Shown: positions 56,672-59,035 of the stretch, one piece after another
Layout of the letters: each line of letters begins with the position of its first letter
Numbering within the stretch: position 1 is the first letter of the stretch
Notes under the pieces: generated by a model
Told to the model about the DNA's origin: nothing
What the model saw: the letters and a program-made list of their open reading frames with translations, nothing else
Database searches by the model: none
DNA from: Sedimentibacter sp. SX930
Lineage (GTDB): Bacteria; Bacillota; Bacilli; Lactobacillales; Aerococcaceae
Assembly (NCBI GenBank): GCA_002155105.1
Contig: MUZD01000002.1
Span: 124,001-188,000, forward strand
DNA length: 64,000 bases
Direction: 5' to 3'
Made by a program: the position numbers and the translations under genes

Positions 56672-56695
56672 ATTCCGCTAGTATTGAAACAAACA

Positions 56696-56712
56696 AAAGA
56701 ATAGGGTTCCGG
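56696..56712. terminator. Left arm of a host terminator split by the insertion sequence
   Basis: AAAGAATAGGGTTCCGG at 56696-56712 is complementary, with one G-T pair, to CCGGAATCCTATTCTTT at 58260-58276. Joined without the insertion element they form a 17-pair bidirectional terminator with a GATAAAA loop between rbfA and the C39-like gene. Confidence 0.85.
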
Positions 56713-56721: not shown

Positions 56722-56783
56722 GGCTCTCTGTCAAATGGTGTTGATGAGACATTTTAGCTGTTGAAATAAGGGAGCCACATTCA

Positions 56784-56827
56784 CAAACTCCAGAAGAGAA
56801 TTTTTCTCTTTTGGGGTTTGTTTTTTT
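56784..56827 (+). terminator. Inward terminator at the left end of the insertion sequence
   Basis: On the plus strand CAAACTCCAGAAGAGA (56784-56799) pairs with TCTCTTTTGGGGTTTG (56805-56820), 16 pairs with two G-T, followed by seven T residues. It would stop transcripts coming from rbfA. The transposase stop codon falls in its T run. Confidence 0.85.
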
Positions 56828-58118
56828 ATATTGCCTGAAGCAGATTGAATTGGATAAAAATCCGATTGCGGAAATGAATGAAGTTCCTGTAGCCATAAGA
56901 GACTCTCTTGATGACCTTTATTTTGTTGTTTATCCCTTCCATTACTCCGTTGGAGTAGTTATAGGAGAGACTGTTGAGAATGTATTCTTCGGCGACCTTG
57001 AATGACTTCATAGCTTTTTTCATGTTGGGTGAAAGGGATTTATGGGGTTCATTCAGAAAATTTTTAAACAGTTCTTTTTCTTTATGGTTCACCGCATATT
57101 TGATAGTCTGATAGGCATCATAATTTGCTTTCAGAGTGAGGTCTATTCCCAATAGATAATCGACTACATCTTTATCGCACATGCCCTTTTTGAAGAGTCT
57201 ATGGTAGCGGAAATTGGTAAAGTCCAGCTTGTCCTGGTCCATAAGCAGTAATTTCCAGTAGTTCTTCAATTTTGTATAATCGCGACGAGCTTTTGGTTCG
57301 GATGCCTTCCTAAGGCCATTCATCACTTGAATACGGGTTTGATTTAACGCGCGATTCACCTGCAGAATAATGTGGAACCGATCGATGATAATCTTGGCGT
57401 TAGGAAAGACTTCCTTAACTAAAATCATGTACGGAGAATAAAGGTCGGTCACAACCGTCTCTACACGAGCCCGTACTTCATAAGGGAAACGCAGGAAGTA
57501 TTCTCGTAATCTGAATAACCGCCTATCCGGAAGGACATCAAACAACTGATGTGTTTGCGAATCACAACAGACAAAACTCATCGCTCCAACACAATCCTTT
57601 ACCGACTTGAATTCGTCGAAACAAAGGTGCTTGGGCAAGTAATGATAGGTTTGTTTGAAACTGTTGTAAGAATTTTTGAAAACACGGCTGGTTGTATTCG
57701 CGGAGACGTGATGAATCGCAGCGATGTCCTTTTCTGAAATGGTTTTCCTTGCATATAGGGCAATTGAAACCTTTGTGGCCCTGGAAATAAAACAATTTTT
57801 CTCCACTATATTTGTTTGCGCACTAAAGGTAGAAGAGCATTCTCTACAAAGGAATCGCTGTTTATTCAAGTCGAGGAAGGCTGGATAGCCGGAAACCTCT
57901 GGTAAAACGATCCTGGATTTCTTAGTTCCATTTTTTACGATTGACTGCTGGTTTTCCATCCCGCAGTTAGGGCACCGTAGTGCCTCGAAGGTCAAGACAG
58001 CAGAGAAGACTTTCGCAATTTGACCCTTGATTACGACATCCTGGCAACAATTTTCTCCGAAATGGATATTAAGGTCTTTTATATTCAACACATTTCGCAT
58101 ATACTTTGATATAGACAA
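56826..58118 (-). CDS. ISL3-family transposase
   Basis: A 430-residue DDE transposase. N-terminal zinc-binding cysteines (RCPNCG and FLCRECS) and a helix-turn-helix (about 120-155, TISEKDIAAIHHVSANTTSRV) precede the catalytic domain: Asp in LCFDEFKSVK, Asp in VVTDLYSPY with IIIDRFHIILQVNRA, and Glu in NGVMEGINNKIKVIKR. The start is TTG at 58118, about ten bases after AAGGAG; the first in-frame ATG is six codons later. The frame is unbroken. Codon use is more A/T rich than in the neighbours, fitting foreign origin. Confidence 0.93.
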   Translation of the reverse strand: MSISKYMRNVLNIKDLNIHFGENCCQDVVIKGQIAKVFSAVLTFEALRCPNCGMENQQSIVKNGTKKSRIVLPEVSGYPAFLDLNKQRFLCRECSSTFSAQTNIVEKNCFISRATKVSIALYARKTISEKDIAAIHHVSANTTSRVFKNSYNSFKQTYHYLPKHLCFDEFKSVKDCVGAMSFVCCDSQTHQLFDVLPDRRLFRLREYFLRFPYEVRARVETVVTDLYSPYMILVKEVFPNAKIIIDRFHIILQVNRALNQTRIQVMNGLRKASEPKARRDYTKLKNYWKLLLMDQDKLDFTNFRYHRLFKKGMCDKDVVDYLLGIDLTLKANYDAYQTIKYAVNHKEKELFKNFLNEPHKSLSPNMKKAMKSFKVAEEYILNSLSYNYSNGVMEGINNKIKVIKRVSYGYRNFIHFRNRIFIQFNLLQAI

Positions 58119-58202
58119 ATGAAATCACTCCTTAAAATATCTGGCTTAGTCACCTTTATTTTAACAGAGTATTTCATTTGTCCTTTTTTTTGCACTTTTC
58201 AC

Positions 58203-58238
58203 AAAAAAGGCGTTGATGAAATTTACTTCATCAACACC
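58203..58238 (-). terminator. Inward terminator at the right end of the insertion sequence
   Basis: On the minus strand GGTGTTGATGAA (58238-58227) pairs with TTCATCAACGCC (58220-58209) around a six-base loop, followed by six T residues (58208-58203). Its first arm is part of the right terminal inverted repeat. It would stop transcripts entering from the C39-like gene before they reach the transposase. Confidence 0.85.
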
Positions 58239-58253
58239 ATTTATTATAGAGCC

Positions 58254-58261
58254 ATAAAACC
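58254..58261. repeat. Target-site duplication, right copy (ATAAAACC)
   Basis: Second copy of the eight-base duplication, identical to 56714-56721. Confidence 0.93.
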
Positions 58262-58276
58262 GGAATCCTATTCTTT
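58260..58276. terminator. Right arm of the split host terminator
   Basis: Complement of 56696-56712. It also contains the TAG stop codon (58268-58270) of the C39-like gene. Confidence 0.85.
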
Positions 58277-59035
58277 TGTCTGCATTTCCGCCTGATCGGG
58301 CGTCCCAGCCGCGATGTAGATGGCTTGTTTGCCCATTTGTTCCCAAGCCAGGATAAAGTTCTGCCTGTCGACTTTCTGGTCCTTTTGGCCGTAGGGATTG
58401 TTTATGTAAAGACTATCGGCGTCGTACCCGACAACCACAACGCTGTGCATGATGTAGCTGATGTTGACCGAGCCTGTCGGAGTTTGCCACACTTCCAACG
58501 CATCATCGGGCAGGAAAGTGGTCGTAGTGACGACCCAAACAGGAAAGCCTCGATCAAGGGCAGAAATGACAGAAGTGAAGTCCTGTCCGCTGACATCCTC
58601 CACGCGAGCGGATGGTATGTATTCGGATGCCAATGCCGCGATGGGGCCATGGTAGACGCAAAAACCGTAATCCGAACCGGTGACATCGCCTACAAAACCC
58701 TCGTTCGGGTTCCCTTGCAGTCCGTTTTCATAGTAGATGGGAACCACTGGGAGCCTGTCGGCGAGTTCGTTTTTCGTTACCGTTATCCCGTTGTACTGCA
58801 GGATCATTGCTAGCGAGGTGACTTCGCAGCCGAGCAGCAAGGCCGGCGGATCTAGCTGATTCAGGAGCGGAACATCCAGCCGGACAGCAACCGAAGGAAC
58901 GGATCGCAGAATCATGCCGGATTCTGCAGTCGCTACTTCGGTTTCATCGGAATCCCTGCGAATGAGACTCAGCGGCATCAGACTGATTAAAATGCAAGAA
59001 AAAAGCGATATGTGGTTAATCCTGCCCTTTATCAT
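58268..59035 (-). CDS. C39-like peptidase family membrane/secreted protein
   Basis: A 255-residue protein of the Peptidase_C39_2 type. A hydrophobic N-terminal anchor (residues about 9-25) leads to a papain-like domain outside the cell: Cys70 in LLLGCEVTSLAMIL, His in YIMHSVVVVGYD and the third residue in YINNPYG. Such proteins are often wall-associated and of unknown substrate; no bacteriocin or ABC exporter lies beside it, so a role in leader-peptide cleavage is unlikely. The start is the ATG at 59035 with AAGGAG seven bases upstream; the frame from 59077 lacks one. Its stop codon is inside the host terminator arm, now cut from its partner by the insertion sequence. Confidence 0.82.
   Translation of the reverse strand: MIKGRINHISLFSCILISLMPLSLIRRDSDETEVATAESGMILRSVPSVAVRLDVPLLNQLDPPALLLGCEVTSLAMILQYNGITVTKNELADRLPVVPIYYENGLQGNPNEGFVGDVTGSDYGFCVYHGPIAALASEYIPSARVEDVSGQDFTSVISALDRGFPVWVVTTTTFLPDDALEVWQTPTGSVNISYIMHSVVVVGYDADSLYINNPYGQKDQKVDRQNFILAWEQMGKQAIYIAAGTPDQAEMQTKE

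What the first reader, a model, noticed from the sequence alone, without database searches (positions are those of the whole stretch)
56784..58238. The insertion sequence carries inward-acting terminators at both ends
A plus-strand terminator at 56784-56827 and a minus-strand terminator at 58203-58238 each face the outside. They would stop transcripts from rbfA and from the C39-like gene entering the element. The right one shares its arm with the terminal inverted repeat. This both shields the transposase gene from readthrough and repairs the termination lost when the host hairpin was split. Protection from impinging transcription is known for other insertion sequences by other means, but I do not know this two-sided terminator design as described for ISL3.
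Basis: partly seen in the sequence, partly recalled or inferred. Interest (0 to 1): 0.7.

Follow-up and report, generated by a model that had tools for sequence, protein, structure and literature searches.

The report
Jumping gene walled by inward terminators
This bacterial insertion sequence sits in a host gene terminator and carries its own stop-transcription hairpin at each end, both facing mainly inward; the same layout recurs across its branch of the ISL3 family, so it appears to seal its transposase gene off from neighbouring transcription while replacing the stop signal it breaks.

Summary
The 1532-bp ISL3 element (56722-58253; duplication ATAAAACC) has a plus-strand terminator at its left end and a minus-strand one at its right end, both reading inward. 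It lies in the loop of the rbfA terminator; a same-species genome keeps that site empty. The layout is not local: at a fixed cut-off 26 (upstream) and 31 (downstream) of 36 representative ISL3 elements have inward terminators; 28 have both, including all 26 of one supported transposase clade. Outward hairpins are rarer and weaker (10 and 6 of 36). The upstream hairpin uses the inner TIR as one arm and covaries. G.U pairs outnumber A.C mismatches 35:5 and 28:1, pointing to selection on the inward RNA. Copies also favour host terminators: 8 of 11 Trichococcus sites, 7 of 13 elsewhere. The upstream terminator of ISL3 is already in print (PMC2965389); my searches showed no report of the inward downstream terminator, the TIR arm or the targeting. 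The tips carry promoter halves that would join on a circle and start inside the terminator arm: a possible on-switch, untested. Termination itself was not measured.

The parts
56722..58253 (-). ISL3-family insertion sequence, 1532 bp, transposase on the minus strand
   Evidence: TIR and exact TSD; DDE_Tnp_ISL3 3.7e-51; one match in its own genome
56714..56721 (.). target site duplication ATAAAACC, left copy
   Evidence: one copy only in the empty site of G068
58254..58261 (.). target site duplication ATAAAACC, right copy
56722..56747 (+). downstream (left) terminal inverted repeat
   Evidence: 22 of 26 matching
58228..58253 (-). upstream (right) terminal inverted repeat; its inner part is the 5' arm of the right terminator
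56783..56827 (+). left inward terminator: hairpin 56783-56821 plus six T; antisense to the transposase
58203..58238 (-). right inward terminator: hairpin 58238-58209 plus six T; upstream of the transposase
56826..58118 (-). transposase gene (430 aa)
58158..58163 (-). TAAAAT with TG before it, between terminator and transposase; possible internal promoter, no better than shuffles for this element alone
   Evidence: 46% of shuffles as good here; 15 of 28 elements at 10% or less
58243..58248 (-). TATAAT, -10 half-promoter in the upstream TIR
56729..56734 (-). TTGACA, outward -35 half-promoter in the downstream TIR
56690..56712 (.). left arm of the split host terminator between rbfA and the C39-like gene
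58260..58282 (.). right arm of the split host terminator

Best explanation
Both hairpins are intrinsic terminators kept by selection to stop RNA polymerase entering the element from either side. The upstream one stops sense readthrough into the transposase gene; the downstream one stops antisense transcription of it, so that transposase output depends little on where the copy lands. The element tends to insert into host terminators, and its inward terminators then end the two neighbouring transcripts just inside the element, replacing the stop signal it disrupted. Shown here by computation: sequence, preferred direction, conservation, covariation, strand-specific G.U bias and target preference. 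Inferred: actual termination, its effect on transposition, and the benefit to host or element.
For: Inward hairpin plus T tract at hp<=-7 in 26/36 (upstream) and 31/36 (downstream) representatives; outward 10/36 and 6/36, at hp<=-9 4/36 and 3/36 against 22/36 and 29/36 inward. Shuffles 0.3% and 2.2% of 360. Both ends positive in 28/36, including all 26 rows of a 100/100 clade, lowest BLAST identity to this transposase 31.9%. Upstream hairpin in 26 elements: 12 of 14 pairs changed on both sides, 91.3% of cells paired, at most 52.7% when slid. Cognate TIR/3'-arm duplexes -20.4 against -10.5 kcal/mol non-cognate, 27 elements. G.U 35 against A.C 5 upstream, 28 against 1 in 28 downstream hairpins. 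Insertion sites inside terminator footprints: 8/11 in Trichococcus, against 3.6% of all 8-mers and 16.7% of AT-rich intergenic 8-mers of this window; 7/13 in other lineages, without a matched background. Uninterrupted terminator in G068, G067 and G069. IS256 controls 0/8 upstream, 2/8 downstream.
Against: No RNA data. The window's own hairpins also score outward (-9.4, -8.9), though less than inward. Eight of 36 representatives, all from unnamed phylum-level genomes, lack one or both terminators, five of them with TIR plus exact TSD, so the design is not needed for transposition across the family. Five further elements whose ends I could not place (labelled ISKpn25, ISPpu12, ISStma11, IS1165, and one staphylococcal) show no inward terminator at the cut-off in a crude look. 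RNA polymerase would still cross each TIR before stopping. Related rows inflate the upstream counts. The -6.5 cut-off was chosen. IS6 controls have a strong downstream inward hairpin in 4/4 and an upstream one in 1/4, the downstream one scoring in both directions. The background for the Trichococcus sites comes from this window, not from the two genomes that hold ten of them.
Confidence: 0.76

Rival explanations
1. The upstream inverted repeat is a DNA palindrome, a second transposase-binding half-site next to the TIR, and only looks like a terminator.
For: One arm is the TIR core itself, and a binding site would co-evolve with it.
Against: Mismatches on the inward strand are G.U rather than A.C, 35 to 5, which a DNA palindrome does not predict; a T tract follows (26/36); most printed downstream hairpins do not use the TIR core yet have the same direction (by eye).
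Confidence: 0.07
2. The downstream hairpin is the ordinary 3' terminator of the transposase mRNA, as PMC2965389 proposes for IS 3' terminators, perhaps acting both ways.
For: It lies right after the transposase stop codon; the window's hairpin also scores on the transposase strand, -8.9; the four IS6 controls score both ways.
Against: Downstream outward 6/36 against inward 31/36; G.U 28 against A.C 1 on the inward strand; in the window the outward tail is only TTTGTG.
Confidence: 0.08
3. The terminators persist mainly because the element lands in host terminators and copies that restore termination for the neighbours survive; shielding the transposase is secondary.
For: 8/11 and 7/13 insertions in terminators; the window copy splits a terminator between convergent genes.
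Against: 3/11 and 6/13 joined sites are not in scored terminators (one of the 3 looks like a terminator by eye).
Confidence: 0.25
4. Chance hairpins in AT-rich ends.
For: AT-rich ends make hairpins with T runs easily.
Against: Shuffles reach the cut-off in 0.3% and 2.2%; strand bias and covariation.
Confidence: 0.01

Closest known systems
Class 1 'mobile attenuators': 5' terminators upstream of transposases, ISL3 in Firmicutes among them (Naville and Gautheret 2010, PMC2965389; section 13 read, other passages seen)
   Same: Upstream inward terminator said to prevent expression of the IS from outside.
   Different: That section describes IS 3' terminators as ending transcription of the IS genes; here the downstream one faces mainly inward. 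The TIR arm and terminator targeting are not mentioned in what I read.
IS10 and IS200 protection by RNA structure (titles seen in the reference list of PMC2965389; mechanism recalled)
   Same: Guards the transposase against outside promoters by an RNA structure.
   Different: As recalled, IS10 hides the ribosome-binding site; here intrinsic terminators sit at both ends.
IS911-type junction promoter (passage in PMC9330008)
   Same: Outward -35 in one repeat and -10 in the other, joined on a circle.
   Different: Here the -10 is followed at once by a terminator that shares the TIR; promoter activity not shown.
IS1272/TnSha1 targeting of hairpins, terminators among them (passages in PMC4923244)
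   Same: Insertion into transcription terminators.
   Different: IS1272 deletes the stem-loop and makes no duplication; here an 8-bp duplication and an undeleted site.

Membership tests
ISL3 insertion sequence family | DDE_Tnp_ISL3 transposase with ISL3 zinc ribbon and HTH | tested here: met
   PF01610 3.7e-51, PF14690 5.5e-8, PF13542 1.5e-6
ISL3 insertion sequence family | terminal inverted repeats beginning GG and an 8-bp target duplication (feature recalled) | tested here: met
   22 of 26 bases, ATAAAACC on both sides; single copy in the empty site
Intrinsic transcription terminator | stable RNA hairpin directly followed by a U tract | tested here: met
   both ends
Intrinsic transcription terminator | transcripts actually end there | not testable with these tools
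   no RNA data
Class 1 mobile attenuator (PMC2965389) | terminator upstream of the transposase in sense direction | tested here: met
   window right terminator; upstream inward 26/36
IS 3' terminator of PMC2965389 Figure 7b | ends transcription of the 3'-most IS gene | tested here: inconclusive
   downstream outward 6/36 against inward 31/36; the window itself is one of the 6 (-8.9) with a tail of TTTGTG
IS911-type junction promoter | -35 and -10 halves in opposite repeats at promoter spacing on the circle | tested here: met
   both at least 4/6 in 31/36, swapped slots 0 and 1; a 5-bp circle spacer reported for an enterococcal ISL3-like transposon (PMC5559704 passage) would give 17 bp
IS911-type junction promoter | circle formation and promoter activity at the junction | not testable with these tools
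   no circle or expression data for this element
IS1272-type hairpin targeting | stem-loop deleted and no target duplication | tested here: not met
   8-bp duplication and undeleted empty site

The most novel reading that the evidence does not exclude
The upstream terminator is a start-site-sensing switch. RNA that enters from outside contains the whole hairpin and terminates. When the element excises as a circle, the downstream TIR's TTGACA and the upstream TIR's TATAAT join (7 + 5 + 5 = 17 bp with a 5-bp spacer) into a consensus promoter whose start lies inside the hairpin's 5' arm. That RNA lacks the stem base, leaving a gap (median 4 nt predicted) between hairpin and U tract, so it should escape and make transposase. 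Integrated copies would be quiet and insulated on both sides, while circles would be switched on.
Probability: 0.3. Interest if true: 0.82.

Novelty: new variant of a known kind. Interest (0 to 1): 0.63.

Why it matters
Upstream terminators that mute transposases were known in outline. A conserved inward terminator at both ends, with strand-specific selection, would make these insertion sequences natural transcription insulators. Together with insertion into host terminators it gives a simple reason why such elements could spread with little damage to neighbours. It also makes an open question testable: how an element stays quiet in transcribed DNA yet expresses transposase when it moves.

Tried and rejected
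Tested and set aside: a DNA palindrome only, an ordinary transposase 3' terminator (not fully excluded, see rivals) and chance. A first finder for control elements failed (no IS256, one doubtful IS6) because loci came in contig orientation and the repeats are imperfect; copy comparison and a repeat motif then gave 8 IS256 pairs and 4 IS6 elements, several of them alike. The search for a third control family gave few hits and was dropped. Solo left ends in Trichococcus were followed far enough to show that they are not complete ISL3 copies.

Rows dropped before counts: 26 of 83 loci with a transposase reading frame had no usable pair of ends; 21 of the 57 others were copies or near-copies (85% transposase identity or more); L010 was given motif ends by hand after a false TIR. 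24 of 36 representatives were placed by TIR plus TSD, 12 by TIR motif, which includes the 5' arm but not the 3' arm or T tract. The covariation alignment holds 26 of the 28 two-sided representatives (L053 and L163 left out, stem elsewhere); the duplex test holds 27 (L053 out). One Trichococcus site (L100/L079) looks like a terminator by eye but was scored and counted negative.

Full report
WHAT IS THERE. The window holds one ISL3-family insertion sequence, 56722-58253 (1532 bp), with 26-bp imperfect terminal repeats and an exact 8-bp duplication, ATAAAACC. The transposase gene is on the minus strand (58118..56826, PF01610 3.7e-51). It is the only match in its genome. At the left end a plus-strand hairpin (56783-56821, 18 bp) is followed by six T; at the right end a minus-strand hairpin (58238-58209) is followed by six T. 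They fold at -24.2 and -17.6 kcal/mol, z -7.6 and -6.6; the opposite strands fold at -17.0 and -14.4 with T-poor tails. My terminator score gives -19.2 and -12.3 inward, and still -8.9 and -9.4 outward, so inward is a strong preference rather than an absolute.

THE HOST SITE. The element lies in the loop of the terminator between rbfA and a C39-peptidase-like gene, which face each other. I call the genus Trichococcus because a contig of one genus member (G060) matches, by length and content, the named Trichococcus alkaliphilus record. The rbfA region was found in all 12 other genus genomes searched. In three of the 12 (G068, same species; G067; G069) the same hairpin stands uninterrupted with one copy of ATAAAACC; by eye the other nine carry different hairpins there. 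The insertion separated the two arms by 1.5 kb, so transcripts of both neighbours would meet their next terminators inside the element.

HOW GENERAL IT IS. Representatives came from searches by transposase or by the whole element's DNA, not by hairpin, though L071 was brought in by a match to the repeat. 83 loci held a transposase reading frame; 57 gave both ends, 36 of them representatives below 85% identity. A TransTerm-like score was applied to 150 nt from each tip. At hp<=-7: upstream inward 26/36, downstream inward 31/36, upstream outward 10/36, downstream outward 6/36; at hp<=-9: 22, 29, 4 and 3. Flanking DNA gave 4/36, 8/36, 7/35 and 5/35 at -7. Dinucleotide shuffles gave 0.3% and 2.2% of 360 per end. 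With a -6.5 cut-off, chosen after seeing the values, and a position limit upstream, 28 have both, 3 the downstream one only and 5 none. All 26 rows of one 100/100 clade have both, and the eight others lacking one or both are unnamed phylum-level genomes. The set includes IS1251 (L181) and ISEfa11 (L183), as their records name them, and a 1438-bp element from Streptococcus entericus (L020). Five further elements whose ends I could not place (labelled ISKpn25, ISPpu12, ISStma11, IS1165, and one staphylococcal) showed no inward terminator at the cut-off in a crude look.

SELECTION ON INWARD RNA. The upstream hairpin's 5' arm is the inner TIR. In 26 elements aligned by MAFFT, 12 of 14 pairs have changes on both sides and 91.3% of cells pair; sliding the partner by 1-3 columns gives 28.3-52.7%. 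RNAalifold, left to itself, found 8 central pairs, 7 with changes on both sides. Cognate arm duplexes average -20.4 against -10.5 kcal/mol for swapped ones (27 elements; none of 20,000 permutations as good). A DNA palindrome would also covary, so I compared mismatch types: G.U holds in the inward RNA but reads A.C on the other strand. Counts were 35 G.U against 5 A.C upstream (24 other mismatches), and 28 against 1 in 28 downstream hairpins chosen with a score that treats the two alike; 21 of those had more G.U and none more A.C. Relatedness inflates the upstream figure. The downstream hairpins differ widely in sequence and position by eye, as if often rebuilt while keeping direction.

TARGETS. 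Eleven Trichococcus copies were paired by exact duplications, ten from G060 and G067 and the window's own. In 8 of 11 the duplicated 8-mer lies inside a terminator footprint. The background in this window is 3.6% of all 8-mers, 4.0% of AT-rich ones and 16.7% of AT-rich intergenic ones (binomial P 5e-10, 1e-9, 6e-5); it was not measured in the other two genomes. In other lineages 7 of 13 joined sites did, 8 having been skipped for open frames, without a matched background. AT-rich target preference explains part of this; survivorship bias is possible.

CONTROLS. Eight IS256-family pairs from the same bacterial family gave 0/8 upstream and 2/8 downstream inward terminators (outward 1/8 and 0/8). 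Four IS6 elements gave 1/4 upstream and 4/4 downstream, the latter also 4/4 outward. The controls are few and partly related.

HALF-PROMOTERS. In 31 of 36 representatives the upstream TIR carries a TATAAT-like hexamer and the downstream TIR an outward TTGACA-like one (each at least 4/6; 27 at 5/6, 17 perfect); the same slots swapped give 0 and 1 at 4/6. Circles of an enterococcal ISL3-like transposon have 5 bp between the repeats (PMC5559704, passages), which would give 17-bp spacing. A start about 7 nt after the -10 falls inside the terminator's 5' arm: in 25 of 27 elements the stem starts at offset 11-16 from the tip, and predicted hairpin energy drops from a median -19.2 to -11.8 with a median 4 nt unpaired before the U tract. 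So a circle-borne transcript might escape the terminator. Against this, the shortened hairpins are still fairly stable and L163 is unaffected. It is inference from geometry. A second -10-like site lies between terminator and gene; it reaches the best 10% of shuffles in 15 of 28 elements but not in this one (46%).

PRIOR WORK. Section 13 of PMC2965389 (read) reports 5' terminators upstream of ISL3 transposases in Firmicutes as guards against expression from outside, and describes IS 3' terminators as ending the IS genes' own transcription. PMC4923244 (passages) reports IS1272 targeting hairpins, terminators among them, with deletion of the stem-loop and no duplication. PMC9330008 (passages) describes IS911's junction promoter and lists ISL3 among families with confirmed outward promoters. 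PMC3812183 (passages) reports a circle for an ISL3-like element and cites others. PMC12428005 (passages) reports that upstream transcription raises IS1 transposition and an added terminator lowers it. PMC9208149 (passages) found ISL3 over-represented between co-directional genes and does not list it among families over-represented between convergent ones, which neither supports nor excludes insertion at gene ends. PMC11702846 (passages) describes an ISL3-associated insertion halfway through an rRNA-operon terminator with an 8-bp duplication. That paper and PMC5559704 also mention ISL3-like insertions beside van genes that did not silence them, so such an element need not switch off a neighbour that keeps its own promoter. 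Ten searches of open-access papers listed nothing whose title or abstract start reports the inward downstream terminator, the TIR arm or terminator targeting for ISL3; subscription papers are mostly not covered.

VERDICT. The upstream half is known; the two-sided, mainly inward design with strand-specific selection, and its pairing with terminator targeting, looks new as a variant. Whether transcripts end there, and whether circles relieve it, needs experiments.

Noticed in passing
L085 2047-2152, L086 2046-2152, L087 2012-2114, L089 2043-2145, L090 2052-2150: Orphan downstream ends (about 100-107 bp with the terminator) without a transposase in Trichococcus; four of them (L085, L087, L089, L090) continue into a shared non-ISL3 sequence of up to about 415 bp.
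   Followed up: partly
L094 about 2057-2116: About 60-bp mini-element made only of the downstream and upstream terminal repeats back to back.
   Followed up: no
L093 about 1988-2038: A hairpin very like the upstream end of the element, with T runs on both strands, just after a possible stop codon; perhaps an insertion-sequence terminator taken over by a host gene.
   Followed up: no
L091 1668-1710 and L092 2005-2047: A 43-bp stretch 91% identical to the left terminator without terminal repeats, apparently just after a host reading frame.
   Followed up: no
L074-L082 and L096-L135 (G060, G067): At least ten copies of this element or a near relative lie at contig ends in two other Trichococcus genomes, while the window's genome has one.
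   Followed up: partly
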